Shown here piece after piece: positions 18,171 through 64,000 of a stretch of DNA of 64,000 nt. This stretch comes from Cordylochernes scorpioides. Taxonomy: Eukaryota; Arthropoda; Arachnida; Pseudoscorpiones; Chernetidae. The notes below the pieces were generated by a model. That model searched no databases. It had not been told where the DNA came from and worked only from the letters and a program-made list of their open reading frames with translations. Made by a program: the position numbers and the translations under genes. Numbering within the stretch: the stretch's first letter is position 1; each line of letters opens with the position of its first letter. The stretch covers positions 47,345,794-47,409,793 of the forward strand of contig CP092886.1 of the NCBI GenBank assembly GCA_030710605.1. The letters run 5' to 3'.

Positions 18171-18272
18171 TTTTTTGGTGACGAAACCCGGGAAAGAAGT
18201 AGAAGAAATAGAAAGTTTTTAGAAGCCATAGAAATAAAGAAAGGTAAGGTTTTGAATACTAATCTTTAAAAT

Positions 18273-19450
18273 ATGGAAACAGAAATCTTAATTTTTGAAT
18301 CTCTGATTAAAAGTTTAGAATTGATAAAAGCAGATGTAGAATATAATTTAGAAGGCAATGATAAATACGCACTTATGCAAAATAAAGAAGACTTGTTAAA
18401 TTTAAAGCTAGCTTTGATAATCAATATGTAAAATTAGTAAAATATAAAGGCATTAATGCTGAAGAAAAATTTAAGGTATCCTTTGAGGCAAAGTCTAAAA
18501 TCAATTCTTTTTTTGATAAAAATAAATAGATCGCTGGGAAATTTAAATAAAAATACATTTTCTGGTGAAACCAATTTAGAACTTCCTAAATTTCAATTGC
18601 CCACCTTTAGTGGTGATATTTCAGATTGACTGAGTTTTAAGGAAATTTTTATTAGATCTATTGATCAAAATCCAACACTGGGAAATTTTCAAAAACTTCA
18701 ATATTTAAATTCTGCACTAAAAGGAAATGCCGCTAGACTTATTAGGGCGTTCAATATTTCTGATGAAAATTATCCTATTGCCTGGCAAACCTTGGTCAAT
18801 AGATTCGACAAAAAAGTGAATTGGCTTTTAAACAATTCAAAATTCGTATGATCTAAAAAATGTAAAACAAGAATCGACTAAAGATGTACTTGATCTCCTG
18901 GACACTTGTAACGAAAGCATTCAGAATCTCTCTATCCTCGAATTGGAACGTAATAATTTATCAGATATGATTTTAATTCATATAATTCAATCAAATCTTG
19001 ATCGTTCAATAAGAAAGGAATGGGAGATGAGTTTGCATGAGAAAGAATATCCATCGTATGAAAAGATGATTTCTTTCCTGGAAAGAGATGCTGGAAGTAT
19101 CGGGAGTTTTCAGAATAAAGAAAATTCAAAACAATTCTACAAAATGAATAAATCCACTCATTCTCATTCAGCAACATTTGCCTCTGGCTCTAGTATAGAT
19201 AGCAGAGTCAAGTCATGCGTCTTATGTAAAGGTGAACATTTTTTGTTAAAATGTCCTAAGTTTAATGGTATGATGTTACCTGAAAGATGGACATTTGTAA
19301 AAGATAATCGTCTATGTTACAACTGTCTAAGATCTAACCATAGAGTTTCGTCATGCGTCTTCACGCAAAATTGCAAATCATGTAATAAGAGACATCATAC
19401 TCTTTTGCATCAGTTCAAACCGGAAATGTTAAGTCCTGTTGCGGACATAT
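18273..19450 (+). pseudogene. gag: Bel/Pao gag with zinc knuckles, broken
   Basis: Met 18273 starts a short piece that stops at about 18431. Later stops include TAG at about 18528 and a TGA at about 18628 where the intact relative at 60635 has Trp (NWLSF). An open piece from 18943 encodes the end of the DUF1759-like capsid region (LERNNLSDMILIHIIQ, KEYPSYEKMISFLERD). Cys/His motifs follow: CVLCKGEHFLLKC, CYNCLRSNHRVSSC and CKSCNKRHHTLLH. The protein would package element RNA. Confidence 0.88.
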
Positions 19451-20110
19451 CTCCATTGACCCATGCCAGTGTCTCATGTTTTGCAGACAACAAAAGTCAT
19501 GATCGAATATTACTCTCTACGGCTTTAATAAAGGTCAAATCGGAAAATGGAGTTCTACAAACATGTAGAGCCCTCATAGATACAGGCTCTCAAAGGTGTC
19601 TTATAACAAATAGTTGTCGAAAGAAATTAAATCTTCCTCTTGCTGAATGTAAAACTACAGTTTTTGGTTTGGGAAACAAACTTGTAGAACATCAATAGGT
19701 GAGGTCTCTCTCCAATTTAGCCCACATTTCTCAAACCTAATATTCAACGCCAATCCTATAGTCATTGATAAGATCACATCAGAATTGCCCAATTTCTTTA
19801 TAGAAAAGGATAATTGGCCTTATTTGAAAAATCTTCTGTTGGCTGACCCCAATTTTGACAAATCTAGCCAGATTGATTTAGTGATAGGAGCAGAGCTTGC
19901 TCCATGCTTATTTAACGGGAAGGTTAGATTCCAAAATTTATCTGGACCCACTGCGTGCGGATCCAAATTGGGATGGTTACTTACAGGTAAAATATTACTG
20001 TCAGGTGAAAATTCCAATCAAGATATAACTATGTTCGCGTCGGAGGAACAAGATGATTTTCTCAAAAAATTCTGGGAGCTGAAGTCAGTACCCTCTGCCA
20101 AATCTTTAAC
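19451..20110 (+). pseudogene. pol: Bel/Pao DUF1758 aspartic protease
   Basis: Active site CRALIDTGSQRCLI at about 19565-19606 with an intact DTG. A frameshift near 19695 moves to the frame of 19785-20237, which carries DLVIGAELAP and GPTACGSKLGWLLTGKI, the conserved end of the domain, and then KKFWELKSVP leading to RT. The intact relative at the right end of the window aligns throughout but has DNG at the active site. Confidence 0.88.
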
Positions 20111-21200
20111 CAGAGAAGAAATTTGTGTGAAGAAATATATATTAATAACCCCAAAATTCTGGAAGATGGAAGATACTCTGTTGGGCTGCCATTTAGAACA
20201 TTGCCAACTCTTGGCGAATCTAGGATCAATGCTCTGAAACGATTTCTATCACTTGAAAGAAAATTACAAAAATCTCCAAGTATCCTAAATCAATATTGTG
20301 ATTTCATGGACGAATATCTTTTAATCAATCATATGGAGCTTATTCTCAGTGATGAGCTGGATACACCTTCAGGACAATGTTATTATATACCTCATCATTG
20401 TGTTTTTAAGGAGCAAAGCACTACCACTAAATTGAGAGTTGTTTTTGATGCATCTTGCAAAACTAGCAATGGCAAATCTCTAAATGACTTTCTTCATGTA
20501 GGACCAAAACTACAACAGGATATCTTCAACATTCTGATAAGAATTCGAACACGCCCAATAGCTTTTTCAGGAGATATAGAGAAAATGTATCGCCAAGTAA
20601 GAATCGATTCTAGGGATTGTGATTTCCAGAGAATTTTATGGAGAAAAAAACCCATCAGAACCTTTATTGGATTATAGACTACTGACTGTGACATATAGAT
20701 TGTCTTGTGCGCCATATCTCGCCATGCGTACCCTACATCAACTTGCAAGGGACAAGGTGTCAACTTTCCCAGTGGCCTCAAAAATAGTACAAACCGATTT
20801 TTATGTTGATGACTTGCTTTCTGGTGCAGACACAATTGAAGAAGCTACATGTCATATTCGTGAAGTCAATAATCTTCTTTCTTCAGCCGGATTTTCTCTT
20901 AGGAAATGGAGATCAAACGTCCCAGAGGTCCTTTCTGGATTATCAGAACAGGTTGAAGATAGGCATAATCTTTGGGATTTTGAGAGTGATTCATGTATCA
21001 AAATACTTGGTATTTGTTGGAATCCTTCCTTGGACATTTTTCAGATTCTTGTTAATGACATTCCAGAACAAACAAATTCTAAAAGACATTTGTTGTCCCA
21101 CATCTCCAGAATCTTTGATCCTATAGGCTGGCTGTCACCAGTTATTATTCGTCTTAAAATTTTGCTTCAATCACTTTGGAAACAGAAGTTGAATTGGGAT
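20111..21200 (+). pseudogene. pol: Bel/Pao reverse transcriptase, frameshifted
   Basis: The first part (20123-20677) includes YYIPHHCVFKEQSTTTKLRV, VVFDASCKTSNGKSLND and FSGDIEKMYRQVRI (first catalytic Asp). A frameshift near 20655 moves to the long frame 20619-22142, with LSCAPYLAMRTLHQL and the catalytic YVDD at 20802-20813, then FSLRKWRSN and SRIFDPIGWLSPV. This is the ~374-codon region that is missing from the related protein at 60635-64000. Confidence 0.9.
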
Positions 21201-22142
21201 GATCCCTTGCCTGATACTTTGTGCTCTCAATGGAAGAAATTCGAAAAGGAATTATCCGTATTAAATAAAATTCAAATTCCTAGATACTTCTCGTGCAGGG
21301 GAGCTTTACTTTCTGTTGAACTTCATGGTTTTAGTGACTCTTCAGAAGTTGCATATGCGGCAGTATTTTATATAAGATCTCATTTCAAATCGGGCCAAGT
21401 GAAAGTTTCTCTGAAATATTCCAAGACGAGGGTAGCTCCTCTGAAAATGATTTCCATACCACGGCTGGAGCTGTGCGCTGCTCTTCTTCTAGCAACTTTA
21501 TATGATACTATTCGCAATTCTTTATGCTTACAAATTGATAGAGTATTTTTATGGACTGATTCCAAAATTGTTCTCAGCTGGATTAAATCTGAATCTAGAC
21601 ATTGGAAACCATTTGTCGGAAATAGGATTGCTGGAATTCAAAGATTGACTTTACATTCTTCCTGGCATTATGTCATTTCGAAAAATAATCCTGCAGACTG
21701 CGCTTCCAGAGGTATAACTCCTTCAGAGCTGGTGGATCACTCTCTTTGGTGGCGAGGACCAACTTGGCTCTCGGATGTGAACTTTGAAGATCCAATTCAA
21801 ACTCAATATGATTTTCCGAAAGAAATTTCAGGTGAAAGACGAAAAACATTCTCTGTTTTTCATTCCACTAATCTTCTTTTCCCAGACTTCATTTTCAAAT
21901 ACTCAAATATCAACGAACTTGTTAGAATTACAGCATGGATTTATAGATTTGTATTCAATGTCCAATGTTCTTACAATGAAAGAAAGAAAGGACATCTATC
22001 TTCAAGCGAATTAACAAGTTCAATTCACAATATCATTCGTTTCATCCAAAGTTCTGAATTTCAATCAGAAATTACCTGTTGCAAACAAAAGAAATCTTTA
22101 CCAACTAACTCAAGGCTTTTTATCTTTGAATCCTTTCATTGA
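21200..22142 (+). pseudogene. pol: Bel/Pao RNase H region
   Basis: Same open frame as the RT C-terminus. RNase H acidic residues lie in ELHGFSDSSEVAYAAVFY, PRLELCAALLLA, FLWTDSKIVLSWIKS and NPADCASRG. The frame ends at TGA 22140-22142, where the integrase frame takes over after a short overlap. This half of pol is one of the least damaged parts of the element. Confidence 0.88.
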
Positions 22143-23367
22143 TGAATCTGGACTATTACGGGTTGGAGGAAGATTACGTCATTCAAATCTGCTATTTGAT
22201 GAAAAGCATCCAATAATATTACCAAGAGATCATTTTATCACGGAATTAATAGTGCGACAGTGTCATCTGGATAATTTACATTCTGGTCTTCAACTGACCA
22301 TGTCAGCACTACGATTACGATATTGGATTCCTTCAGGCAGAAGTTTGGTCAAGAAACTAATCCACCAATGCATGGTGTGTTTCAGGGCTAAACGTCAAGT
22401 TACCAAGCAAATCCCGGGAGATCTGCCCATGCACCGAATTGTGAAATCAAATCCGTTCACTAAAACTGGAATCGACTTTGCAGGACCGTTTTTGATGAAA
22501 CCAAACATCAAAAGATCCAAAGTAAAATTAAATCATATGTTGCTTTATTTGTATGTTTCTGCACAAAAGCAATTCATATAGAAATTGTATCAGACCTATC
22601 TTCAGCGGCTTTCCTCGCAGCTCTCAAGCGGTTTATTTCTCGTCGAGGAAAACCTTCTGATATATTTAGTGATAACGGGACCAACTTTAGGGGAGCTAAC
22701 AACATTCTCCGAGAGCAGTTTGATATATTGAAAGCTTCAACAATTCAAAAATTCATATCTAATGAACGAATCAACTGGCATTTTATACCTCCTTCCGCCC
22801 CAAATTTCGGAGGTATCTGGGAGGCTGGAATAAAATCCTTCAAATTTCATCTTCTCAGATGCTTAAAGTCTCAGATACTCACATTTGAAGAGCTGAGTAC
22901 TCTGACAACTCAAATAGAAGCTTGTTTAATTCACGACCTATTTGTCCTCTAAGTTCAGATTCAGACGATTTTAATCCTCTTACACCAGGACACTTCTTAA
23001 TTGGGAGACCCTTAACTGCCCTTCCAGAATCTTATGATGATTATGTTCCGATAAACTACCTCGACCGCTGGAGCCTAAATAAAAAATTAAAGATGTATTT
23101 TGGAAACGTTGGAATCGAGAATACCTCAACAATTTGCAACAACGCCTAAAATGGCAAAAATCCTCACCCAACATTAAGGAAGGTGACCTCAGCTTGCTAA
23201 AGGATACCATATCACCACCAGCAATGTATTGGAGCCTTGGTCGCATCACCAAAGTCTTTCCGGGAGCAGACGGAAAAGTTCGAGTCGTCGAGGTGAAGAC
23301 CAAGCACCAAGAACACCTTACTAGAACTGTCTCTAAAATAGTACCATTACCTTTTGCTGAGGACTAA
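22126..23367 (+). pseudogene. pol: Bel/Pao integrase with DUF5641-like end, frameshifted
   Basis: The zinc-binding module is at 22245-22390 (CHLDNLHSG, HQCMVCFRAKR) and the first Asp in KTGIDFAGPF at about 22462. After a frameshift near 22560, SDIFSDNGTNFRGANN holds the second Asp (about 22660-22700). The Glu is in NFGGIWEAGIKSFK (about 22803-22845). Further shifts near 22935 and 23140 precede an open C-terminal piece (KEGDLSLLKD, YWSLGRITKVFPG) that ends at 23365-23367, 22 bases before the 3' LTR. Confidence 0.88.
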
Positions 23368-23389
23368 GTTAGTCCACCGGGGTGGAATA

Positions 23390-23688
23390 TGTTAGGTTTT
23401 TTTTATTATCATTATTTTAGTAATCTATATGTTAGGTTTTATTTTTTATTATTATTATTGTATTTTATTAATTAATTATAATTCATATTCATATAATTTT
23501 ATTGTTACTTATCATCATTTTTTTTTGTTTTTTTTTTCTTCTTCTTCTGTTTTCTTTTGTGTTAAAATAAAACTAAATCGCATTAAATCGTAGTGTAATT
23601 CTTTTTTGTTGTGTGAAATAAATCGAATTGAATCGAATTGAGTCAGCTCGTTCTTTCTAGAAGAAACATCAAAGAAAACGTGCTAACA
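23390..23688 (+). repeat. Bel/Pao 3' LTR
   Basis: 299 bp. Differs from the 5' LTR mainly by a longer T/C-rich tract near 23520-23550 and a few substitutions. Purine-rich CACCGGGGTGGAATA precedes it. Confidence 0.95.
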
Positions 23689-28995: not shown

Positions 28996-31900
28996 GTAGA
29001 CGAATGACCCGGCTTCGCCCGGGAATTCCCCCGAGTGCAATTTCCTTCATACTGAAAGAACATTACTAATAAATAGTATTAGAGCCATAGAATAGCAACA
29101 CCGAAGTAATACATAGTTCAAATAGTTGGCAGATTTTCCACCCAACCTCCGAGGTACCCGCCCCAGCGTGTTAACTCTTATATATAGTGGTGCATCCTCT
29201 GTAGGTCTATTACACTCTTTGGGTAAAAAGGGATAGGGATTGAAATTGCTTGAGAAGAGTGACCGTGATTGACCAAGCCTAGCCAGCAGCCTGTAATCTA
29301 ATGTTTTCAGACCCCAGTCAAACATTCGTAGATGTTTTTCTGAAAAATAATAAAAAAAAAAACTAATATTAATATAAATCATAATAATCTGCAACTGTCC
29401 TTGAATATTCTAATTCTAGAGATTTTACCTTTCAAATATATACAAATATATACGTATATAGAAAGAATTATGAAAATAATATACCACTCAAACAACAACA
29501 ACAAAAAAGACTAAAATAGCATTAAAAAATTATTCATGACAACACAGAAGTATACACAAAATTTGAAGTCTTATTTTCTGGAGCCAAAACATAAAGATTT
29601 CTTCCTGAGCCAACTCTAGAGCAGGCAACATACAATTGCCCATGCGAGAAACAGGGTTGCTCCAAGTCAATGCCAGCAATTTTGAGGGACTGACCTTGAG
29701 CCTTGTTAATCGACATGGCAAAAGAAACCCGAATGGAGAAATGCAATCTTTTAAAATGCAAAGGAGAATGTTTATCATCATGAATCAGAGGAATCCGGGG
29801 AATAAAAACCTCTTCATTTTGAAAACAACCAGTCAAAATGGTTGCCTCTACCACATGAGGCCACAATCTTTTAACACAGAGACGGGTACCATTGCAAAGG
29901 CGGGGTGCATCAATATTTCTCAATAAAATAATGGGAACACCAACTCTAAGTTCTAAGTGATGTGGTGGTATCCCAGAAGGTTCTAAAGAATTTAAAAACA
30001 CTGTAGTCTATTCCACGCAATCCTCAGCATCAATGGTGGAATCCACAGAAGTATATAAAATGCTTTGCCCTGGTATTTCTTTCAAAAGCTGAGCATTTAT
30101 GGCATCAACTACACAATTCCTTGGAGCCAAAATTGCCCGCTCACAAAGCCAAGGATAGTAATTCGCCCTTCCCCGGTTAAACATCTCCCCAATGTTAGGA
30201 AAAACACTATTCTTTATGCCAGAGAGGGAGTCACACACACACACACAACAGTGTTAACCAATTCATTTGAAAAATTAACATTACCATCCGTGTCATTAAG
30301 TTGGCCACTTCCAAGTTGAAGCAAAAATTGTGAAAATAACAGCGAGTTAGGATCTCCTGAATTGACAGCCCGCATATTTGTTGAAAGAGTAAGTCTTTCA
30401 ACAAATGACCAAAGTGGGGATGCCTTTAAGCAAGCATGCAACTCATCTGCTATTGTACCTCTAGGGATAATGGGCAATATCTGCCTGAAGTCACCGGCCA
30501 ACAACAACACTACACCTCCCATTGGTCTCTGATCCTGCCTACAATCTTTAAGTGTTATATCAACTGCCTCTAAAGCATGCCTGTGTGCCATAGTACATTC
30601 ATCCAGACAATAAATTTGCATTGTCTAAGAACTTTGCCCATTGCTGAATCAGCATTCAAATTACAAACTGGTACCTCATCCCTGGTCAAATCTAAGGGTA
30701 ATTTGAAAGTCGAATGAGCAGTTCTGCCACCATGCAACAGAGTGACCGCAATACCAGAAGAAGCTGTAGAAAGAGCAATGTCCCCAGTACTTCGTACCTT
30801 TGTAAGAAGAAGATTGATCAGAAAAGTTTTTCCTGTGCCCCCCGGAGTATCAAGAAAGTACAATCCGCCAGCATTGTTATAGTGACGGACACGTTGCATG
30901 AACTCAGCCGAGTGAGGAGAAGACCCATCGAGCAGAGTTCTGAGAGCTTCTGGGGGTTCAGGTAAATCAGGAATTCTGACCTTCCCTGCAGAACAGCACA
31001 TTCCAGGCCGCTCACCATTGTACTTAAAGGCAGTACAATGTAGACATTGTTTATCCATATGGCCAATCTGAAGAAAAGTAAATTGTTCATAATTCAGGGC
31101 CGGATTGTAATGGAAAGCAGCATTGAGCATATCAGCCCAAGTGCTAGCTCGTTGCCTGAAGTGCCGCAACCGGTCAGCCTCCTGTCGTGTTTGGGACTGC
31201 TGGGGAGTCTCTGATGCGTGTTGAACTCTGTGGCGCAGCCGGTCACTTTGGAGGCGGGCTTGAGACTGTTGGGGATTCTCCAATATGCGGCTACTTTGGC
31301 CTCTAGCAGCTCGGGCAGCCATGCGTCGAGCTGCAGGAGTTCTTACTCCAATTGCAGATCTTTTGCGAGGCATATCAAATGGGATGATTAAATTTTAAAA
31401 TGTCCTTAAAAAAAAATAGAAATAGCACATTCAGTACCAAAAATAATTTTGTATATATATAAAAAAAAGCTTTTAAGGAAAACAGTGCAGACCCAAAACA
31501 AATCCAAAGTATCAGAATAAGTTACAGAACAAAACTGATTATCTAGTAGAAAAGGCAGAAGTATGTTGGAAAAATATATAGATAGGGAGATGGGGCGCAC
31601 TCAACTATAGGGAAAAAAAGCATACTACCCATCTTATCAATAAGGTCTGCCTTTTTAATAAAAGTATTATCTCATATTCAAAGAAAAGTAACAAAACAAA
31701 GGCCATCACAACAATAACTAAACATAAGAACCCATTGTCCACACATAGGATCAGTAAGTTTGTAAATATCAAAACTACATTGTTCACTAACCATAACTTG
31801 GGAACTAAAACAAATTTCTCTCTCAACATTTCAGCAGAAAAAAAAGGCTAAAAAACCTAATGGCAAAACATGTCAAACAGGTCAATCTTTAGAATGCTCA

Positions 31901-33995: not shown

Positions 33996-35541
33996 TTAAA
34001 CAATAAGATTTATGAGAGTCAAAATAAAAGCGGTGGGGGACGGTAATGGTATATTGAGTGAACATTTTTATTCAAACATAAAATGTACTACTCAATTGTT
34101 TTATTAAATCGCAATAAGTTCTAAATTATTTATTATCGTTCTCTTCTGCCTTTATTTTGATTCGTATAATTGTCCAATAGCGAAGAGAGAAGCTGAAATA
34201 ATTAGTTTATATTTTCAAATGCATTTTTGAATAAAAACTTTTTGAAACTCATTTTTAGTGATTCATTATTTTATAGTGGTATTCAATTTATATATAATAC
34301 TAGCCGAATGACCCGGGCAACGCCCGGGTTTTACCCGATTAAATGCTTTTATTCTCAAATACTATTAGTTACAATTATAAATTGGCGCCGTGGATGTTAT
34401 TCTTGTGAAACGTCCCGCTCCAAACTTTGTGTCTGAGAAGCGATATTTTTATAAAGAGATTATAAATTGGCGCCGTGGATGTCATTCTTGTGAAACGTCC
34501 CGCTTCAAACTTTGTGTCTGAGAAGCGATATTTTTATAAAGAGATGATCTGAAGCCCTGGAGGTTGTAGCTCTGTCGCGCAAACCACTCAACCGGGAAGG
34601 TTTTTGAAAAATAATTTCTTGAATATCCTTAGAGTTATTTGCAGATTTGTAGATTTAACTAAATGATGATTATTATTTATTAAAAGTAAGATTGATAAAA
34701 TGATGATTTTGTAATGTAGAAAATTAGGAAAGACAAAATTCAGGATGACACGGCAATTTATTTGAGACAAGAATAATGATACAATTCCAAGGTAAGATAC
34801 TATTCCTTTAACTTCCAATTACCGAGGGAACCAATTAATATTGATTTTATTCAACTTATCGAGTATTTTTCAAGGGACCGGGAAAAGTGTTCACTAGATA
34901 AAATGATGATTTTGTAATGTAGAAAATTGGGAAAGACAAAATTCAGGATGACACGGCAATTTATTTGAGACAAAAATAATGATACAATTCCAAGGCAAGA
35001 TACTATTCCTTTAACTTCCAATCACCGAGGGAACCAATTAATATTGATTTTATTCAACTTATCGAGTATTTTTCAAGGGACCGGGGAAAAAATTTTCACT
35101 AGATAAAATGATGATTTTGTAATGTAGAAAATTAGGAAAGACAAAATTCAGGATGACACGGCAATTTATTTGAGACAAGAATAATGATACAATTCCAAGG
35201 CAAGATAATATTCCTTTAACTTCCCATTACCGAGGGAACCAATTAATATTGATTTTAAACGAAAAAACATGGTGAAGGGAAGACGAGTTTCTTTTATTGA
35301 TGCATAGGTGCAAGCTTTCGGGTAAAAACCCTTCAACAGGCGAGAAATAAAGCGCGACTTATAATAAATATGATACAAATGGTAGGAAGGAATATATATA
35401 CAAAAAAGGAAAGTTTTTAAACTATTTATATATGTTAATATTAACAGAAGACCGATTTTGAGAAAAGTAAATATTAAATCTGCAGTCTGAAACCACGAGA
35501 CGGCGCATGATTAGGGCTATTGAAATAAACATGTGGGAGGT

Positions 35542-36255
35542 TTAAATAAAGGACAGGAGAGTATGATAAGCTTCTGGAAGATCTATTTTTCTGTTGATGC
35601 TGTTCAGTTTGTGGGATACTATGGATTCTAGGATAAGTCTTTGGTGTAAGATGTGTATGTGCCTGTAATGTATGGTGGGGTTTTTGATGTTGAAAGTGTG
35701 GCCTGTGCTCTGCATATGTTGATAAATGAGGGATTTGGTATCTTGTCTGGAAATATTACGGGAATGTTCAGTCATCCTGATGGCCACAGATCTACCTGTC
35801 TCACCAACGTAAGTGGCAGGACACTGTTCACATGAGACGGAGTAGACTGCGCACATAGAACGAAGAGGGTCAGGGGGAGCTGAGGATTTAGTATGAGGAT
35901 GACGAAGGGATGAAAGAAGATTCGGGGAGTTTTTATATATGGTACGGATGCCATAAGATTTAAGTTTTCTGGCTATATCTACTGAAGAGGGGGAGTAAGG
36001 AAGAAAGCACAATGATCTGTAAGTGATGGAAGGATTGGAAGTTGTAGGTGTATAAGTATATTTATTAATGAACGAGAGCGGAAAAGAAGCTGCGGAGAGC
36101 TGGGTTATGATACGATTTCTTTCTATTATTTTAAAGATGTCTATGGAACAATGGGTGTATATTCTTTTTGTAAGGGTTCTGACAATTTTGATTTTATGGG
36201 AGGTAGGACAGTGAGAATTGTAGTGAGTGTAACAGGGGGGGCATTGTTTTTTCAT
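35542..36255 (-). pseudogene. Penelope-like GIY-YIG endonuclease, 237 codons
   Basis: An open frame to its stop with the Penelope pattern. VYSVSCEQCPATYVGETGRS holds the GIY-like VYS, the CX2C insert typical of this family and the YVG (YIG) motif. It is followed by IRMTEHSRNISRQD and TGHTFNIKNPTI. Upstream residues (IERNRIITQLSAASFP) belong to the linker to RT. As no RT precedes it, this is a 5'-truncated element, though this endonuclease part has no stop. It would nick target DNA for insertion. Confidence 0.8.
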
Positions 36256-36713: not shown

Positions 36714-37624
36714 ACCTCGCACATGTTTATTTCAATAGCCCTAATCATGCGCCGTCTCGTAGTTTCAGACTGCAGATTTAATATTTACTTTTATCAAAAA
36801 TCGGTCTTCTGTTAATATTAACATATATAAATAGTTTAAAAACTTTCCTTTCTGTATATTTATTCCTTCCTACCATTTGTACCATATTTCTTATTAGTCG
36901 CGTTTTATTTCTCGCCTGTTGAAGGGTTTTTACCCGAAAGCTTGCACCTATGCATCAATAAAAGAAACTCGTCTTCCTTCACCATGTTTTTTCGTTTAAT
37001 TTCAAATCAGGAAGAATTCTTTATCTATATTGATTTTATTCAACTTATCGAGTATTTTTCAAGGAACCGGGAAAAAATGTTCACTAGATAAAATGATGAT
37101 TTTGTAATGTAGAAAATTAGGAAAGACAAAATTCAGGATGACACGGCAATTTATTTGAGACAAGAATAATGATACAATTCCAAGGCAAGATACTATTCCT
37201 TTAACTTCCCATTACCGAAGGAACCAATTAATATTGATTTTATTCAACTTATCGAGTATTTTTCAAGGGACCGGGAAAAAATGTTCACTTTATCGAGAGA
37301 TTCAAATTTACGAGTTTCAAATTATATCAAAATATATCTATTATTTTTTACATATGTTATATTCAAATGACATTTATGTAGGGATAATTTTATTGTTAAA
37401 TTTCATTTTGATGTATTGTATACATTTGATCATTAATATATTATTATTTAGGTATTAAAACTGCCTTTTTGTTCAAAGACAGCAACGTTTGAACGGGTAC
37501 AGCTAAGTGGAGCAGATAATCAAACATAAAGTTATCTTGTCAAGTATAGATTCATTAGGGATTGGATGTTTTCTAGAATTGTTTTAACAAATGTTCGTTA
37601 GACAAACCTTTACTTGGGTAAAAT

Positions 37625-37775
37625 CCGGAATATTATTATCATTAATATCATAATATTATGTGTGTTCCGGAATATTATTATCATTAATATCATAATATTA
37701 TGTGTGTTCCGGAATATTATTATCATTAATATCATAATATTATGTGTGTTCCGGAATATTATTATCAATAATATT
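37625..37775 (+). repeat. 42-bp minisatellite, about 3.6 units
   Basis: CCGGAATATTATTATCATTA units start at 37625, 37667, 37709 and 37751, nearly identical, just inside the right Helitron 3' end. Confidence 0.92.
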
Positions 37776-41139: not shown

Positions 41140-42860
41140 AATAAATATTTTACTTCATTACAATAACCCAAACAGAAACTATTCCTTATTATCCTGAAAA
41201 AATACGAAACAAGAATTATGAATTTGGAAGGATAAATTTCACCTTTCACTTTGATTTTAAACTTTAAATCTTATTTCAAATGAAAAAAAAACCAACTCAG
41301 ATATTGTTATTTAAAATAAAAATCATTGAAAAAATATATTTAGCGCATACTGTGAAAATGTCCCAGCCTAAAGGTAATATTTTAACCTATTTTAATTATA
41401 AAAAATGATTTTCTGAACAATAGATATATTACACTATTTCCTAATATTAATAGTTTACAAATTATTAATAAACGATATCGAATATTTTTAACACAATGTT
41501 TCATAACAAAAGTAATGAAACGATATATTTCATTCAATTACAATAACCCAAACAGAAACTATTCCTTATTACCCTGAAAAAAATACGAAACAAGAATTAT
41601 GAATTTGGAAGGAAGAATTTTACCTTTCACTTTGATTTTAAACTTTAAATCTTATTTCAAATGAAAAAAAAAAAAAACTCAGATATTGTTATTTAAAATA
41701 AAAAAAATCATTGAATAATATACATTTGGCACATACTGTGAAAATGTCCCAGCGTTAAGGTAATATTTTGACCTATTTTAATTATAAAAATATTATATCT
41801 GGAACAATAAATAAATTACACACACACAATTTCCTAATATTAATAGTTTACAAATTTAGGTTTAGTTTACATAAAATATTCCTTACTGCCATATAGTGAA
41901 AGGTGAAACAAAAATTAGAAATTATGAAGTAAAAGAGAAGGATTTTGCCTTTACTTTAATTTTAAACTTCAAATCCTATATTTCAAATAAAAAAAAAAAC
42001 AACAACTAAGATATTGTTATTCAAAATAAAAATCATTGAAATATATATATTTAGCACATACTGTGAAAATGTCCCAGCCTAAAGGTAATATTTTAACCTA
42101 TTTTAATTTTAAAAAAATATTTTCTTAACAATAGATATATTACACACTATTTCCTAATATTAATAGTTTACAAATTGTTAATAAACGATATCGAATATTT
42201 TTCAACACAACTTTTCATAACAAAAGTGATACGACTATATATTTCATTCCATTACAATAACCCAAACAGAAACTATTCCTTAGTGCCCTGAAAAAATACG
42301 AAACAAAAATTATGAAGAAGAAGGGAAGGATTTCGACCTTCACTTTGATTTTAAACTTCAAATTCAATATTTCAAATGGAAAAAAACCAACTCAGATATT
42401 GATCGATTAATAGACCTTCAACATGCTTTGGGACCAACTCAGATATTGTTATTTAAAATAAAAATCATTGAAATATATATAATTAGCACATACTGTAAAT
42501 TTGTCCCAGCCTAAAGGTAATATTTACACCTATTTTAATTATAAAAAATTATTTGCTGAACAAAAGATATATTACACTATTTCCTAATAGTGAGTGTTCA
42601 CAAATTGTTAATAAACGATATCGAAATTTTTTCAAAAAAACTTTTCATAACAAAAGTGATACGACTATGTATTTCATTCCATTACAATAACCCAAACAGA
42701 AACTATTCCTTAGTGCCCTGAAAAAATACGAAACAAAAATTATGAAAAAGAAGGGAAGGATTTCGACATTCACTTTGATTTTAAACTTTAAATTCTATAT
42801 TTCAAATGGGAAAAAAACCAACTCAGACATTATTATTTAAAATAAAAAAGGAATATACAT
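41140..42860 (+). repeat. ~380-bp satellite array, about 4.5 units
   Basis: Units share CAATAACCCAAACAGAAACT (41161, 41541, 42255, 42685), AACTCAGATATTGTTATTTA and CATACTGTGAAAATGTCCCA. The third unit has lost its start, and the fourth has an insertion of about 50 bp around 42405-42435. No coding. Confidence 0.9.
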
Positions 42861-55589: not shown

Positions 55590-56251
55590 CTAGCGGATGT
55601 ACCCGGCTTCGCCCGGGGTTTTACCCGAGTAAAGGTTTGTCCAACGAACATTTGTTAAAACAATTCTCTATAGACTTATTAAAAAAATAATAGATATATT
55701 TTGATAATTTGAAACTCGTAAATTTGAATTTCTCGATAAAGTGAACATTTTTTCCCGGTCCCTGTGTGCCGTGTCATCCTGAATTTTGTCTTTCCTAATT
55801 TTCTACGTCACAAAATCATCGTTTTATATAGTGAACATTTTTTCCCGGTCCCTTGAAAAATACTCGATAAGTTGAATAAAATCAATATTAATTGGTTCCC
55901 TCGGTGATTGGAAGTTAAAGGAATAGTATTTTCGCCTAGGAATTGTATCATTATTCTTGTCTCAAATAAATTGCTGTGTCATCCTGAGATAATCTTACTT
56001 TTGATAAATAATATTTAAGATAATAAAACTTATAGATAAAAAAACTTGTTAACATCGTCGCAATGGTGGCGCTGCTTGCGAGTTAAATCTGCAAATAACT
56101 CTAAGGATATTCAAGATATTCAGGAATTTATTTTTCAAAAACCTTCCCGGGGATATACCTAATAATATCCCAAAATTTCATGGCGATTGGATGTATGGTT
56201 TTTGAATCTATAGAGTACAGACAGACATTCAATTATATATATATATATAGA
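55590..56251 (-). mobile_element. Non-autonomous Helitron, 662 bp
   Basis: On the minus strand it starts TCTATATATATATATA after A (56252) and ends in hairpin CCCGGGCGAAGCCGGG, TACATCCGCTAG before T (55589). The interior carries sequence from the ~203-bp tandem family. All border rules of Helitrons are met. Confidence 0.88.
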
Positions 56252-58297: not shown

Positions 58298-60237
58298 TAA
58301 TAACACCCGATGGTCCTAAACCCAAACCTTGGTTCGACCGTAAGTGCTACTTAACAAAAAAATCTCTAAAATCTCAGCTTAAAATCTACATAAGATCAAA
58401 CAGTGAAGGTGACTGCAAGGCATACGCTTTATTAAAAAAGAAATACTCATCACTTCTGACCGGCAAAAAGAAAACCTACTATACTAAAATACAAGAGAGG
58501 TTGAAGGAGGTGAGGGACTCTGCGGGTTTTTGGAAAACAATATCACTGTTTAAAAATAGAAGAACAAAACTCTCAGAAACATTTCTATTCAAAAATGGCA
58601 ACAGTTTTATACCGAACTTGGCCCATAAGAGTTATACTGATGCCAGACGACGAGTTAATGGCCGAAATATCCTTGTCGGAGATAACTGGAGAAATCGCTC
58701 ACTTGAAGCGCAATAAGGCTTGTGTACTTGATAATAGTCTTAATGAAGCTATAAAAGCCATGCCCCCAGCTTATTTGACTGCCTTAAAAGATATTTACAA
58801 TAGAGTTCTAAAAACTGGTCAATTCCCAACAACTTGGTGCAAAACAATTATACATCCCATCTTTAAAAATGGTGATGCCGACAATCCTCACAATTATCAG
58901 GGAATAGCACTTCTAAGCAACCTCGCTAAGCTTTTCTCATCAATACTGAAAATACGGCTAAGCAACTGGACCGAAAATAGAGCAATTATACCGGAAAATC
59001 AAGCGGGTTTCAGAAAAGAACATTCATGCCAGGATCATATTTTTACTTTAGTCTCACTAATCCAAATAACACTTAGACGTAAAAGACGAAAGTTCTACGC
59101 TTTCTTTATCGATCTTAAAAAGGCTTTTGATACGGTGCCCCAAGCCCTCCTATGGAAAAAACTGTTAGACATTAGATTGAATTTCCGATTTATAAATCTA
59201 ATTAAGAATTACTACGAAAACATGACAGCTGCGGTGAGATGGAACAATTCATTCACTGAATTTATCAGAATAAAATCCGGAGTGTTACAGGGTGAGCCAC
59301 TATCTCCTTACTTATTCATACTTTTTATTAACGACCTGATTAGTACTTTTGACTGCTCTGATATACCTGGTATTTATCTGCCAAAGCATGGAAATATCCA
59401 TTTGTTACTATATGCAGATGATATTGTACTGATAGGCGAATCTAAGAACAATTTGCAGTTAAAAATTAATATGATACAAAATTATTTTGAGGAAAATATG
59501 CTAACGCTGAACGAAAACAAATCAAAAATAATGGTATTTCGCAATGGTGGGAAGCGGTCAAAATCCGATAATTGGTATTGGGGACAACAAACACTGAATG
59601 TCATGGAAAGATACATGTATCTAGGATATCCACTCACCTCATCAAACTCTTTTAAGCAAGCCGCATTATACTATAAGGGTAAAGCTCTCGCTGCCAGTGG
59701 TGCGGTATGGCCTATTCTGACCAGGTCGAAGATGAACTCTTTTAAATCCTCTATGAAACTTCTTGATGCGATGGTTCTATCAACCCTGCTATATGCGGCA
59801 CCTGTTTGGGCAAATGAGCATGCATTAATTGTTGATCAAATTCAGGACTCATTTATGCGAAGATATCTAAATTTACCAAGATACACCCCCGGATACATGC
59901 TCAGGATAGAATTAGGAAGAGTATCACTCAGCGTTACAGTCTTGAAACTTACCTTAAAGTTCTGGTTGAGAATGCTGGGAATGGGTGAAACTAGATTGCC
60001 GCTGCTCTGCTTGTCCCAGCTGTGGGAAACGAAACGAAAAAATATATAGGTTTCACAGGAAGTATAGTTAATATTTTAAACACCACCAGATTTCAATGGT
60101 TGAATTTCTGCACAGACTATAGAACATTACAAAGAGAAATTCCCCACATAATCAGGACTGGAATAGATCAATCTCTGCAAAAGGATCACACAAGAATAAC
60201 AAATTCAAGACTATATCCCCACTGTTGGATCCTATAG
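58288..60237 (+). pseudogene. LINE reverse transcriptase ORF, largely open
   Basis: 58288-58716 encodes the basic linker (PKPWFDRKC, KKKYSSLLTGKK). After one frameshift near 58640 a 484-codon open stretch (58595-60049) covers all RT motifs: HLKRNKACVLDNSLNEA, NQAGFRKEHSCQDHI, FYAFFIDLKKAFDTV (first Asp), GVLQGEPLSPYLFILFINDL and YADDIVLIG with the catalytic YADD at 59411-59422. The thumb and C-terminal region continue (YMYLGYPLTSS, LLYAAPVWANEHA). A second frameshift near 60030 moves to the frame ending at 60237. The RT core itself has no stop, notable beside the broken endonuclease. Confidence 0.85.
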
Positions 60238-60555
60238 TTAATAATTTCCTTAAATTCAATTTTATATATGAAAATTAAGCCAAAATATTCTAAATTCAAT
60301 TGTACAATATAAATCTTTAATATGTAAATTTTAAAGCAATCAACATGTATGTAAATTTCCAGTTTGGTTAATTAATAGTTTTTTTTTGTTTTCTCTCTCT
60401 CTCTACCACTAGTATCATAATCTAAGTCAAATTCATGTATTCTAAAATCATGTGGTAGCTACTCCTAACTCTAAAACCAAAAGACAATAAAATAATTCAA
60501 GACAAGTGGCAAAGTGCTTCTTAGTATCATTTACTGAACATTCAAGCCACGAACA
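60223..60555 (+). repeat. Probable 5' LTR of Bel/Pao-derived element
   Basis: From TGTTGGATCC to CGAACA, i.e. TGTT..AACA ends, as in the Bel/Pao element at 17884. It contains a TATA-like TTTTATATATGAAAA (about 60260) and AATAAA (about 60487). The right LTR is outside the window, so both borders are inferred. Confidence 0.4.
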
Positions 60556-60556
60556 A

Positions 60557-60580
60557 TATGGTCCCTCATCGAGCCGGATA
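60557..60580 (+). other. Primer-binding-site-like leader
   Basis: TATGGTCCCTCATCGAGCCG directly follows the inferred LTR end. A TGGTCC..TCGAGCCGG leader is common after Bel/Pao LTRs. A splice-donor-like AAGGTAAGC follows at about 60593, as in the other Bel/Pao element. Confidence 0.45.
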
Positions 60581-60634: not shown

Positions 60635-63600
60635 ATGCCCAAATCAGAAGTTAAAATTCGGCACAAATTCAACTTTATTATTCAGGAAATAAAGGATCTG
60701 GAATCAGAGAATAAAGCTATTGTAGAATCCAAAAACATACATGGATTAAAGCTATTCCAACAAGAAGTTAATGAAAGGAAAATTAGCCTAAATCAAGTTA
60801 TCAACACATTATTAGAATCAGAGTTAGATGATACACAATATGACGATTATTCAAAGGCCAAGAAGGATATTTTTAATATGTTGGTGTCTATTGAAGAGGC
60901 TTTATCTTTGATTGAAACCAAAGAAAATACTCATAGTGATAAACAACTGCCCGAATCCAATGTTAATTTACCTAAGATAAATTTACCCATTTTCAATGGT
61001 GATTCAGCCAATTGGCTTAGTTTTAGAGAAATATTTAACTCCACCATTAATTCAAATCAAACACTAACTGAAATACAAAAATTTCAATATCTAAATGCAT
61101 CTGTTAAGGGTCCTGCGGAAAAGTTGATTCGGGGTTTTCCCATTTCTGACAAAAACTACCAGCAAGCATGGGATACCTTATGCAATAGATTTAATAACAG
61201 AAGAGAATTGGCTTTTTCACAAATCAACAAAATATTCTCCATAAGGCCATTAAAATCTATTTCGGCTGGTTCTCTCTATGAAATCCTTGATGTTTGCAAT
61301 GAAGGCATTAGAAATATCTCAGTGCTAGGACTTGAGAAAAACACATTAACAGATCTAATCCTGATCAATTTTTTTGAAAAAAGAATTGGTGAAGCCCTCA
61401 GGAAAGAATGGGAATTAACCCTTCAAAATGAAGAATATCCAACATTTGAAAACTTTGTGAATTTTTTAGAAAAACATGCTAGAAGCCTGCAAGGTATGAG
61501 AATTCCTTTGTTCCAGGAACAAAAAACCTCTAGCAAAAATATGATGGCTCATGGCCTTTATGTCAACAAAGGTCAAAATTGTATTTTATGTCATCAAATT
61601 CATAAACTAAATGACTGCCAGAGATTCATAAATCTTCCCTTGCCTAAAAAATGGGAATTAGTTAAAAAACATAAACTTTGTCAAAATTGCCTTAGAGCAA
61701 ATCATGAGATATCCAAATGTCTCATCACATCAAGATGTAAAAACTGCAAGCAGAACCATCATACTCTTCTGCATGAATACAACTCTGAACCATCCATTCT
61801 ACAACCAACAACCTCTCAAGAGATGTTGATTTCAACAAATACCATCTGTAATGCGAGGCCTTTGGAAACGGAAACAAATATTCTACTGTCAACAGCCCTT
61901 ATTAAAGTCAAGGCGAAGGATGGCTCATTTGTGCTATGTAGAGCATTAGTGGACAATGGGTCCCAAATAAGCCTAATTTCAGAACAATGTTGCCACAAGT
62001 TGGGACTTGAAAAAAGGAAAAATTCTTATACACTAAAAGGTGTAGGTGACATTGTTGTCAACAGGACAACATCGCAGGTTGAAATAGAGTTCACCCCACA
62101 TCATAATGATCAATTATTTTCTGCCAGAGCATTTGTGGTTGGGAGGGTAACTGCAGACCTTCCAAACTTCCAAATTCAGTCAGCAGACTTTCCTCATTTA
62201 GAAAATTTGCTCTTGGCAGACCCAGAATTCTATGTCACCAAGCCCATAGACCTAATTTTGGGTGCAGATACCTTTGTAGAAATAATTCTAGGTCATAAAA
62301 CAGATTTAAAGCACCATCCTATAGCACTTAATACCAAGTTAGGTTGGCTTGTTTCTGGGAGAATCCATTCAACTATTAAGTCGAATACTTCGGTAATCAA
62401 TCACTGTACCACTGAACTTGATTCCAGCATAAGAAAATTCTGGGAACTTGAAGATGTCCCAATTTCTAAGGCCCAGTTGGGTATAAAGAATGCCCCATCT
62501 CCAAGTCTACAAGAGTCCATTCAGAACTCTCCAAGTCTAAAGGAGTTCACTCAGAACTCTCCAAGTCTACAAGAGTCCATTCAGAACTCTCCAAGTCTAA
62601 AGGAGTTCACTCAGAACTTTCCAAGTCTGCCGGGGTCCATTCAGACCTCTCCAAGTCTACCAGACTCTGTTCAAGGGTCACCGTCTCTAACTTTGAGCCT
62701 ACAGAGCTCCAAACACAACTCTCCAACCCCCTTACAAGTATCAGTTCACAGCCTGAAAGAGGCCATGTCCCCTTTGGTCGAAATGCCATCAAGCCCTGGG
62801 TGCTCCAAGCAGATTCCAATTCCTATAGAAGAAGACTCTATAGAGAGCCAGAACCGAGTTGATAATCTGCCATCCTACCCGATGAGCCCAGAGCAGAGTT
62901 ACACTCTCTCATCGGCTTCTGTTGAAGATTTCAAGGCCCAAAGTGGGCCCAAGTCCCCTACATCTCCCACCAGAGGTTCAGAGAGTTGCCGATGTTCTGG
63001 GGATTATACAGAGCCACAGATGTCTCAGAACTCCAATTTTTCATGCTCCTCTATAGAAGAATCTGAAGATAATTCAAGTAAATCTGAAGAAAATCTAAGT
63101 AGATCCGAAGATAATTCAAGTAAATCTGAAGAAATTCCAAGTAAATCTAAAAAGTCACGTATCTCTAAGTTAACTCCACAAATTACTTCTAAACAAAACC
63201 AATTACTTCCTTCTGAATCAAGTCAACCATCCACTCCAGAACAACCTCTCGCTTCTCAGTCAAGTGAACCACTCTCATCTAAGAAAGAAACTTCGATTAT
63301 TCCTAAGATAAAGCCACCACCCTATTATAGGCGAAAACGTCAACTTCCTGCTGAGAAAACTTCATGGGATGAACCAATTGAATCAGATATAAAGTCAAAT
63401 TGGAATAAATTCCAAACTCAACTATCATGCCTAAAGGAAATCAAAATACCAAGATACCTGAACAATTCATCTTCTGAAATAGAAGAATTACAACTACATG
63501 GATTTTGTGATGCATCCCTTAATGCTTATTCAGCAGTTTTTTACTTGAAAACTAGATTCAAAAATCAAAAGATCAAAATCAATCTGATAACCTCAAAAAC

Positions 63601-64000
63601 TAAGGTTGCACCATTAAAGACCATTACAATTCCAAGACTTGAACTAAGTGCAGCATTGCTTTTGGCTCAACTGAATCAAGTCATTCTTGAATCATTTCCT
63701 TTTCAACCTGACAAAACCTTTTTGTGGACTGATTCACAAATCTGCATAGATTGGATAAGATCAGATGCCAGCAGATGGAAGGCCTTTGTTTCGAACAGAG
63801 TGTCGTCAATTCAAAATTTGACTCAAGTCACTGATTGGTTCCATGTATCCAGTCAAGATAATCCAGCTGATTGCGCATCAAGAGGAATCATGCCTCAAGA
63901 CTTGGTCAATCATAGAATTTGGTGGCGGGGTCCTATTTGGCTTCAAGAAAATAATGTTCGATATATTCCTTCTTCACCAACCCAAGTAAATCTCAATATC
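60635..64000 (+). CDS. RT-less Bel/Pao Gag-Protease-RNase H protein, intact, runs off window
   Basis: ATG at 60635 is the first Met after an in-frame TAA at 60623. All 1,122 codons to base 64000 are open. Domains: coiled N-terminus (1-100); DUF1759-like capsid region (about 110-300, NLPKINLPIFNGDSANWLSF); knuckles C316-C328, C349-C362 and CX2C/H at 368-380; DUF1758 protease-like (about 425-590) with D440 in ALVDNGSQ and ending KLGWLVSG; KFWEL at 601-605. Then, in place of RT, about 300 Ser/Pro-rich residues. RNase H-like domain from about 911 with D959, E1003, D1033 and D1079, then the WWRGPIWL motif. In the related element at 17884 about 374 codons of RT fill the same interval. Integrase, if present, lies beyond the window. 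It may be an RT-less non-autonomous element or a co-opted gene. Confidence 0.9.
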   Translation, partial: MPKSEVKIRHKFNFIIQEIKDLESENKAIVESKNIHGLKLFQQEVNERKISLNQVINTLLESELDDTQYDDYSKAKKDIFNMLVSIEEALSLIETKENTHSDKQLPESNVNLPKINLPIFNGDSANWLSFREIFNSTINSNQTLTEIQKFQYLNASVKGPAEKLIRGFPISDKNYQQAWDTLCNRFNNRRELAFSQINKIFSIRPLKSISAGSLYEILDVCNEGIRNISVLGLEKNTLTDLILINFFEKRIGEALRKEWELTLQNEEYPTFENFVNFLEKHARSLQGMRIPLFQEQKTSSKNMMAHGLYVNKGQNCILCHQIHKLNDCQRFINLPLPKKWELVKKHKLCQNCLRANHEISKCLITSRCKNCKQNHHTLLHEYNSEPSILQPTTSQEMLISTNTICNARPLETETNILLSTALIKVKAKDGSFVLCRALVDNGSQISLISEQCCHKLGLEKRKNSYTLKGVGDIVVNRTTSQVEIEFTPHHNDQLFSARAFVVGRVTADLPNFQIQSADFPHLENLLLADPEFYVTKPIDLILGADTFVEIILGHKTDLKHHPIALNTKLGWLVSGRIHSTIKSNTSVINHCTTELDSSIRKFWELEDVPISKAQLGIKNAPSPSLQESIQNSPSLKEFTQNSPSLQESIQNSPSLKEFTQNFPSLPGSIQTSPSLPDSVQGSPSLTLSLQSSKHNSPTPLQVSVHSLKEAMSPLVEMPSSPGCSKQIPIPIEEDSIESQNRVDNLPSYPMSPEQSYTLSSASVEDFKAQSGPKSPTSPTRGSESCRCSGDYTEPQMSQNSNFSCSSIEESEDNSSKSEENLSRSEDNSSKSEEIPSKSKKSRISKLTPQITSKQNQLLPSESSQPSTPEQPLASQSSEPLSSKKETSIIPKIKPPPYYRRKRQLPAEKTSWDEPIESDIKSNWNKFQTQLSCLKEIKIPRYLNNSSSEIEELQLHGFCDASLNAYSAVFYLKTRFKNQKIKINLITSKTKVAPLKTITIPRLELSAALLLAQLNQVILESFPFQPDKTFLWTDSQICIDWIRSDASRWKAFVSNRVSSIQNLTQVTDWFHVSSQDNPADCASRGIMPQDLVNHRIWWRGPIWLQENNVRYIPSSPTQVNLNI
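62498..62707 (+). repeat. Seven 30-bp coding repeats (SPSLxxxxQx)
   Basis: Units start every 30 bases from 62498 and encode 10-residue repeats: SPSLQESIQN, SPSLKEFTQN, the same pair again, then FPSLPGSIQT, SPSLPDSVQG and SPSLTLSLQS (residues 622-691). Units 1-2 and 3-4 are the same 60-bp sequence, so part of the array is recent. They lie at the N-terminal side of the sequence replacing RT. Confidence 0.95.
63062..63145 (+). repeat. Two 42-bp coding repeats (SEDNSSKSEE)
   Basis: 63062-63103 and 63104-63145 encode SEDNSSKSEENLSR and SEDNSSKSEEIPSK. A second independent tandem expansion inside the RT-replacing linker. Confidence 0.9.

What the first reader, a model, noticed from the sequence alone, without database searches (positions are those of the whole stretch)
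60635..64000. Intact 1,122+ codon Bel/Pao-type ORF with the reverse transcriptase missing and replaced by a Ser/Pro-rich linker
Seen: one frame is open from 60635 to the window end (read codon by codon), while every other retroelement coding region here is frameshifted. Gag, knuckles, protease-like fold and RNase H with all four acidic residues align with the element at 17884-23688. Between W603 (KFWEL) and W911 (SWDEP), however, where the relative has ~374 codons of RT including YVDD, there are ~308 codons of Ser/Pro/Gln/Glu-rich sequence with no RT motif. Known: Bel/Pao needs RT between protease and RNase H. Inference: this is either an RT-less family that borrows RT from a full relative, or a Gag-Pol-derived host gene. 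The clean boundaries and intact frame argue against random decay.
Basis: partly seen in the sequence, partly recalled or inferred. Interest (0 to 1): 0.88.

Follow-up and report, generated by a model that had tools for sequence, protein, structure and literature searches.

The report
Retrotransposon family with enzymes swapped out
In a pseudoscorpion genome, hundreds of copies of a jumping element have had the genes for their two key enzymes exchanged in frame for unrelated protein stretches, yet they have jumped recently, most likely by borrowing the enzymes of the few complete relatives with which they still recombine.

Summary
The open frame at 60635 keeps Gag, protease and RNase H, with a 304-residue Ser/Pro/Glu-rich linker where reverse transcriptase (RT) belongs. 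It is not a host gene, unique copy or assembly error. The window lies in a 2.62-Gb Cordylochernes scorpioides assembly. The focal copy has LTRs, a 5-bp target duplication and a 1,545-aa frame ending past the window; its integrase (IN) core is also replaced, by an acidic module.

Genome-wide junction counts: RT 118, short linker 317, long linker 218; IN 150, acidic module 541. Of 29 fetched copies, 28 have target duplications; 7 of 21 RT-less copies have identical LTRs, one on a partial match. RT and IN are co-inherited, with 4 recombinants among 78 copies typed on two contigs. Recombination reaches into gag. The acidic module matches a second, distant Bel/Pao family from a shared 7-base motif onward. 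Gag of RT-less copies looks as constrained as that of RT-bearing ones; the linker shows no constraint.

Best reading: a non-autonomous, possibly semi-autonomous, Bel/Pao subfamily mobilised in trans, working like IAP 1-delta-1, bovine ERVK D-type and wheat Quinta/Sabrina elements. Linker origin and cassette function remain open.

The parts
60218..60222 (+). 5' copy of the 5-bp target-site duplication (CCCAC); the 3' copy lies past the window end
   Evidence: Flanks of both LTRs compared
60223..60555 (+). 5' LTR, 333 bp, TG...CA ends; the 3' LTR lies outside the window at the equivalent of 65393-65721, 96.1% identical
   Evidence: Self-comparison of L009, where window position = L009 position + 59207
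60559..60580 (+). Putative tRNA primer-binding site, 3 bases after the LTR
   Evidence: Sequence directly; nearly the same stretch follows the LTR in the nine copies L009-L017; no tRNA was matched to it
60635..64000 (+). Gag-PR-linker-RNase H open frame (1,122 codons in the window; 1,545 aa in all, stop at the equivalent of 65272)
60635..61804 (+). Gag, with DUF1759 (60992-61420) and Cys/His knuckles (about 61580-61774, by eye)
   Evidence: Pfam DUF1759 E 1.8e-29; pN/pS 0.36 in 29 copies
61805..62434 (+). Aspartyl protease region (D-N-G motif by eye)
   Evidence: Asp_protease_2 E 0.0003, below Pfam cut-off
62447..63358 (+). Ser/Pro/Gln/Glu-rich linker replacing RT (304 aa): N-part 62447-63079, in the long form only among the fetched copies; C-part 63080-63358, shared with the short form
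   Evidence: No Pfam; domain map of 29 copies; 218 long and 317 short junctions genome-wide; composition
62498..62664 (+). 30/60-bp tandem array in the linker; differences in it appear to account for much of the length difference between long-linker copies
   Evidence: TRF; site-1 lengths 792-924 nt in the 7 long-linker copies, all multiples of 3
63359..64000 (+). RNase H region (start of the retained C-terminal part)
   Evidence: Peptidase_A17 E 7.8e-38; 51.5% identity to the relative at 21186-21782

Best explanation
The frame belongs to an established non-autonomous subfamily of a young Bel/Pao LTR retrotransposon in Cordylochernes scorpioides. Shown: RT (site 1) is replaced in frame by a Ser/Pro-rich linker. 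In most such copies the integrase zinc finger and core (site 2) are also replaced, by an acidic 272-aa module; in 16 of the 18 fetched module-bearing copies the C-terminal DUF5641 domain is deleted as well. Shown: these copies keep the LTRs, putative primer site and purine tract, Gag and RNase H of the full-length members, carry target duplications and have nearly identical LTRs. Inferred: their RNA is packaged with RNA of RT/IN-bearing members, copied by their RT and inserted by their integrase. Shown: all four site-1/site-2 combinations exist, and linkage between site type and gag variants decays within about 1 kb; I read this as template switching in shared particles. Shown at sequence level: the acidic module matches a second, distant Bel/Pao family from a shared 7-base motif onward. 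Inferred and weaker: RT-less copies still supply working Gag, protease and perhaps RNase H (semi-autonomous), while the linker is mainly a frame-keeping spacer.
For: Copy counts, control 0 each: RT 118, short linker 317, long linker 218, IN 150, acidic module 541. LTRs 96-100% identical, target duplications in 28 of 29 copies, shared putative primer site and purine tract in L009-L017. Full-length forms with one 1,706-codon frame and the same kind of LTRs: L010, L014, L021. All four combinations of site types among 29 copies. Four-gamete failures 830 of 1,540 (gag-PR) and 68 of 136 (RNase H side); LD decays with distance, 0 of 2,000 and 33 of 2,000 site-order permutations as extreme. Gag pN/pS 0.36 in 21 RT-less copies against 0.29 in 8 RT-bearing ones, shifted forward frames 0.87-2.19. 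Shared 7-base motif at the module's edge in family 1, the module and family 2.
Against: No transcript, particle or protein data: supply in trans is inferred. Gag constraint in RT-less copies could be inherited through recombination with full-length copies. Linker pN/pS gives no sign of constraint (N-part 4.2, CI 0.86-6.2, 7 copies; C-part 0.74, CI 0.25-3.2, 21 copies). Of 15 RT-less copies among the 20 taken by list order, 5 have an unbroken frame (1 of 5 for RT-bearing); some broken ones have identical LTRs. The breaks may be replication errors, decay or assembly errors. Recombination could in part be gene conversion between genomic copies. The 29 copies come from the best RNase H matches, and 9 of them are the focal copy plus 8 picked by frame length, so they over-represent recombinants; in the census of C1-C2 only 4 of 78 typed copies are recombinant.
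Confidence: 0.86

Rival explanations
1. Pure parasite: RT-less copies contribute nothing. Only LTRs, primer site, packaging signal and purine tract matter, and their frames are open simply because they are young and keep recombining with full-length copies.
For: Linker shows no constraint, and the family-2 cassette's pN/pS (0.56) is not distinct from its other frames (0.54-0.87). Fresh copies with broken frames exist, e.g. L024 and L027 with identical LTRs. Bovine ERVK D-type elements lack functional genes and dominate new insertions (passages of PMC10924933).
Against: Gag constraint in RT-less copies is close to that in RT-bearing ones; the acidic module has pN/pS 0.44 (CI 0.24-0.89) against 0.87 and 1.24 in its other two forward frames, though the intervals overlap; site-1 lengths of all 21 RT-less fetched copies are multiples of three.
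Confidence: 0.35
2. Regulatory copy: the RT-less polyprotein acts in cis on its own RNA, or interferes with full-length elements, as a defective particle protein would.
For: [quoted passage not shown] here RT-less junctions outnumber RT junctions 535 to 118.
Against: Nothing here tests protein function; numerical excess alone also fits shorter or better packaged RNA.
Confidence: 0.12
3. Gag-Pol-derived host gene (domesticated).
For: Long intact frame; predicted gene models fuse element parts to host domains.
Against: Hundreds of dispersed copies, LTRs and target duplications in the fetched ones; every named match is in one species.
Confidence: 0.02
4. Random decay or misassembly of one full-length copy at 62450-63400.
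For: The linker has tandem arrays, a usual place for assembly trouble.
Against: The same junction at 218 places, the same module junction at 541, independent target duplications.
Confidence: 0.01

Closest known systems
IAP 1-delta-1 (mouse intracisternal A particles); passages of PMC6466679 seen
   Same: In-frame loss of part of gag-pol giving one fusion frame, mobilised by other IAPs, the great majority of new insertion mutations of that group
   Different: A deletion, not a replacement by foreign coding sequence; part of gag is lost; another kind of element
Bovine ERVK[2-1-LTR] D-type elements; passages of PMC10924933 seen
   Same: Defective class outnumbers the competent class, recombines with it (four-gamete test), dominates new insertions
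   Different: D-type lacks functional genes; here Gag, PR and RNase H remain in one open frame, and two sites vary
Wheat RLG_Quinta, RLG_Sabrina and RLG_WHAM; passages of PMC11302176 and PMC9744471 seen
   Same: Gag or Gag-protease kept, RT and integrase absent, domain of unknown function (Quinta), 'semi-autonomous', cassette-like variants (Sabrina)
   Different: Plant Gypsy elements; RNase H not mentioned as kept, and no interchangeable RT and IN sites with the full form described, in the passages seen
Maize Bs1; passages of PMC13317346 seen
   Same: LTR element carrying captured foreign coding segments
   Different: Bs1 segments come from host genes; no host donor found here, and the acidic module matches another retrotransposon family
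Mouse ETn/MusD pair; passages of PMC6466679 seen
   Same: Non-autonomous partner mobilised by a coding relative and more numerous than it (about 240 to 100 in one analysis)
   Different: ETn has no coding capacity

Membership tests
Bel/Pao LTR retrotransposon (clade) | Bel/Pao Gag domain (DUF1759) and Pao RNase H region (Peptidase_A17) | tested here: met
   (that these two domains mark the clade is recalled)
Bel/Pao LTR retrotransposon (clade) | LTRs with TG...CA ends and 4-6-bp target duplication | tested here: met
   28 of 29 copies; focal copy CCCAC
Bel/Pao LTR retrotransposon (clade) | RT between protease and RNase H | tested here: not met
   linker instead. Descent rests on the shared Gag/RNase H/LTR and the 95-97% identical RT-bearing parent, so it is filed as a defective descendant, not a typical member
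Bel/Pao LTR retrotransposon (clade) | Integrase (H2C2, core, DUF5641) | tested here: not met
   Focal copy L009 has the acidic module and no IN core or DUF5641; present in L010, L014, L021
Non-autonomous partner of an autonomous element | Same primer site and LTR ends as a coding-complete member in the same genome | tested here: met
   for L009-L017, of which L010 and L014 have a single frame with RT and IN; that they are functional is not shown
Non-autonomous partner of an autonomous element | Active at the same time | tested here: met
   Mean LTR identity 99.70 (RT, n=7), 99.53 (short, n=14, L033 and L037 on partial or confounded LTR matches), 98.93 (long, n=7); the focal copy itself is older (96.1%)
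Non-autonomous partner of an autonomous element | Co-expression and transfer in trans | not testable with these tools
   No RNA or particle data; recombination is indirect evidence
Semi-autonomous element | Retained proteins under selection and used | tested here: inconclusive
   Gag pN/pS 0.36 in RT-less copies, but recombination with full-length copies can produce this
Host-gene transduction (Bs1-like) | Cassette derived from a host gene | tested here: inconclusive
   In three protein searches every named match was a C. scorpioides protein, within the length windows searched; the acidic module traces to retrotransposon family 2; linker donor not found
Domesticated gag-pol gene | Single- or low-copy locus without LTRs | tested here: not met

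The most novel reading that the evidence does not exclude
A retrotransposon population with two polymorphic cassette sites: catalytic alleles (RT, IN) kept by a minority of copies, and disordered or acidic protein alleles, selected and passed by template switching between distant Bel/Pao families, carried by the majority. This would be a division of labour in which the cassettes give the non-catalytic copies an advantage, for instance in packaging, nuclear entry or evasion of silencing. Family 2, which lost RT, RNase H and most of IN yet keeps stop-free frames of 1,555-1,581 codons in nine listed copies 90-93% identical to the query, would be a longer-lived lineage of the same kind.
Probability: 0.2. 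Interest if true: 0.85.

Novelty: new variant of a known kind. Interest (0 to 1): 0.62.

Why it matters
Defective LTR elements that live off intact ones are known in mammals and wheat. Here, in an animal Bel/Pao family, the loss is an in-frame exchange of RT and integrase for other protein sequence, at two separable sites, with intermediate and recombinant forms still present as near-identical copies. That makes the steps by which a retrotransposon becomes a satellite, and the passage of cassettes between distant families, directly readable. It also warns that some gene models in this genome (for example those named TRAF4 or SYT12) contain pieces of these elements.

Tried and rejected
Host gene and misassembly: rejected on copy number, LTRs and target duplications. 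The window's own relative as the parent: rejected; it is 47-60% identical to P0034 in the RT-RNase H part, whereas P0034 is 95-97% identical to the focal frame in Gag-PR and RNase H. 'Freely shuffled' cassette sites, my reading after the 29 copies: corrected by the census of contigs C1-C2, where RT goes with IN (14 of 16 typed) and linker with the acidic module (60 of 62 typed), Fisher p 1.3e-11. Purifying selection on the family-2 cassette (0.59): withdrawn after the frame control. RNase H pN/pS (0.06) is not used: copies were ranked by RNase H match. Viral contigs: 14 stretches matched a pattern, none encodes a relative. Solved structures: no match to the RNase H part at E 0.1. Linker donor: not found; a search with the ~103-aa extra segment of P0009/P0011 did not complete. 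Structure prediction not used: the linker looks disordered by composition. Papers: three searches plus two broader ones listed no title or abstract start about RT-less Bel/Pao elements with replacement cassettes; one search listed no title about transposons of this genome. Only an open-licence library was searched; I saw listings, abstract starts and, for PMC3286476, PMC13317346, PMC11302176, PMC9744471, PMC3442997, PMC10924933 and PMC6466679, passages. The passages of PMC3286476 (Culex, non-coding elements with tandem repeats) and PMC3442997 (Anopheles) describe nothing like this. The definition of Bel/Pao, the motif readings (D-N-G, knuckles, primer site, purine tract) and the domain order are recalled or by eye.
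Full report
What is there. The frame from 60635 to the window end is open for 1,122 codons. Pfam finds Gag (DUF1759, residues 120-262), weak aspartyl-protease matches and Peptidase_A17, the Pao RNase H region (residues 903-1034), with no RT and nothing in the linker. The window's other Bel/Pao element aligns up to residue 613 and again from RNase H, with about 1,080 nt of RT between.

Whose genome. The linker with its edges (residues 590-935) found 38 proteins with E up to 1; the 19 that carry a name are all from Cordylochernes scorpioides. The window lies in a 2.62-Gb, 24-contig genome at C24:47345794-47409793. C24 has the length of the contig bearing an LAZ67_X gene name, so the focal copy is probably on the X chromosome.

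The element. Read past the window (L009), the frame ends after 1,545 aa at the equivalent of 65272. The LTRs are 333 and 329 bp, 96.1% identical, with the target duplication CCCAC. After RNase H the focal copy has no integrase zinc finger or core. A 272-aa acidic module (net charge -14.7 per 100 residues) stands where the full form has 277 aa of integrase, and DUF5641 is gone. That loss fits a deletion between two copies of a 10-base repeat: 10 of 11 IN-bearing copies have the exact repeat at both edges of DUF5641 (one has it altered at one edge), and each of the 16 fetched copies without DUF5641 has it once at the joint.

Forms. 29 copies were fetched: the focal copy, 8 picked to cover frame lengths (L010-L017), and 20 plus-strand rows taken in list order from the 150 scored of 10,278 first-look RNase H candidates. 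By domains: RT+IN 7, RT+module 1, short linker+IN 2, short linker+module without DUF5641 10, short linker+module with DUF5641 2, long linker+IN 2, long linker+module 5. The short form keeps about 60 codons of RT, then joins the linker at a shared 9-base stretch. Target duplications were found in 28 of 29 copies; in one of these, L037, the match uses an LTR start further upstream and is doubtful. LTR identity averages 99.70% (RT, 7 of 8 copies measured), 99.53% (short, 14; L033 and L037 on partial or confounded matches) and 98.93% (long, 7). LTRs are identical in 3, 5 and 2 of these; one of the five is the partial L037.

Numbers. Junction patterns of 25 bases, up to one mismatch, control 0 each: RT 118, short linker 317, long linker 218 (535 of 653 RT-less); IN 150, acidic module 541. 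On C1-C17, 63 of 83 RT places have an IN place downstream: 28 at the full spacing of 1,999-2,010 bp, 34 shorter, one longer. So RT 118 overstates the number of complete copies, which are a small minority. On C1-C5, IN follows RT in 35 of 43 places, the short linker in 3 of 98 and the long linker in 1 of 73. On C1-C2: RT 14 IN, 2 module, 2 neither; short 2, 34, 5; long 0, 26, 7; Fisher p 1.3e-11. The two replacements are therefore strongly co-inherited, with 4 recombinants among 78 copies typed at both sites.

Recombination. In gag-PR, 830 of 1,540 pairs of informative sites (56 sites) fail the four-gamete test; in the RNase H side, 68 of 136 (17 sites). r2 falls with distance (gag-PR, 48 sites without gaps, 0 of 2,000 site-order permutations as extreme; RNase H side 33 of 2,000). 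Linkage between cassette type and gag-PR variants is at most 0.55 within about 850 bp of site 1. In the first 1,150 aligned columns r2 with RT is at most 0.10, and with the other types at most 0.26. So RT-less and RT-bearing genomes share gag haplotypes. Template switching in a shared particle is the simplest cause; gene conversion is not excluded. Copies were ranked by RNase H match and 8 were picked by frame length, which over-represents recombinants.

Where the acidic module came from. A search with it found 38 proteins, all named ones C. scorpioides. At least nine are a second Bel/Pao family: Gag 23-26% identical to family 1 where it is long enough to compare, protease, then a cassette in place of RT, RNase H and the first part of IN, then the rest of IN and DUF5641. 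One of the nine, P0066, has a stretch of about 124 aa that matches RT (29%) before the cassette, perhaps a remnant; the other eight match neither RT nor RNase H. The module's first 195 aa match this family at up to 82%. At DNA level the full form, the module-bearing form and family 2 share a 7-base motif at the edge, after which the module-bearing form follows family 2. I infer a template switch from family 1 to family 2. A 499-aa piece of the family-2 cassette has 100 matches in the own genome (86 of 961 candidates scored); nine have stop-free frames of 1,555-1,581 codons. The long-linker sequence matched nothing in the nine family-2 proteins, and its donor is unknown.

Selection. Pairwise pN/pS: Gag 0.36 (CI 0.22-0.64), RT 0.27, IN core 0.54 (0.27-1.07), acidic module 0.44 (0.24-0.97), linker C-part 0.74 (0.25-3.2), linker N-part 4.2 (0.86-6.2), PR 1.07. 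Frame controls: Gag, RT and the part after RNase H are lower in the coding frame than in the other forward frames; the acidic module shows the same trend with overlapping intervals (0.44 against 0.87 and 1.24); the linker and the family-2 cassette (0.56 against 0.54-0.87) do not. The one reverse frame that shares third codon positions is also low for Gag (0.29) and RT (0.34), as expected. Gag is about equally constrained in RT-less (0.36, 21 copies) and RT-bearing (0.29, 8 copies) elements, but recombination can share the signal. Of the 20 copies taken in list order, the frame is unbroken in 5 of 15 RT-less and 1 of 5 RT-bearing.

How it most likely works. RT-less RNA is packaged with full-length RNA, copied by the full-length member's RT and inserted by its integrase. 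Retained cis sequences and recent insertion are shown; supply in trans is inferred. Whether RT-less copies give Gag back to the pool is open.

What it resembles. IAP 1-delta-1 and ETn/MusD (passages), bovine ERVK D-type (passages), wheat Quinta, Sabrina and WHAM (passages), and Bs1 for captured segments (passages). It fails as a typical Bel/Pao member for want of RT and IN, and stands as a non-autonomous descendant of one.

Noticed in passing
window 17884-23688: Distant Bel/Pao relative with RT, broken into several frames; 47-60% identical to the full-length family-1 protein in its RT-RNase H part.
   Followed up: partly
window 58595-60049: 484-aa RT frame (RVT_1, E 7.7e-34), probably a non-LTR element; the focal element lies about 170 bp past its stop codon.
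   Followed up: partly
proteins P0056, P0057, P0059-P0063, P0065-P0072: Second Bel/Pao family with Gag, protease, integrase C-part and DUF5641, a cassette in place of RT and RNase H; compared with P0062 copies are about 68-92% identical in Gag and 72-92% in the cassette. P0066 has an RT-like stretch; an RT-bearing parent was not sought further.
   Followed up: partly
own genome, C1-C17: 34 of 63 paired RT-IN copies have a spacing shorter than the full form, in recurring size classes about 650, 750 and 830 bp short: further internal deletion forms, not fetched.
   Followed up: no
proteins P0009 and P0011: Long linkers with an extra segment of about 103 aa in place of 17-19 aa of the focal linker; origin search did not complete.
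   Followed up: partly
proteins P0015 (TRAF4), P0045 (SYT12), P0023 (ARPC3 domain), P0007 (GPCR domain): Predicted proteins of C. scorpioides fuse pieces of this element to host domains or bear host gene names; the public annotation seems contaminated by it.
   Followed up: partly
L019, L020, L024, L027: Copies with identical LTRs but broken frames: replication errors at the last insertion, or indel errors of the assembly.
   Followed up: no
window 34374-35257, 37624-37774 and 42003-42831: Tandem arrays of 85/203, 42 and 430 bp; parts of the 203-bp array recur near 55767-55987.
   Followed up: no
window 30573-31373 (-) and 35545-36255 (-): PIF1-like helicase fragment (E 4.9e-24) and a weak GIY-YIG match below cut-off, perhaps Helitron and Penelope-like remnants (recalled).
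   Followed up: no
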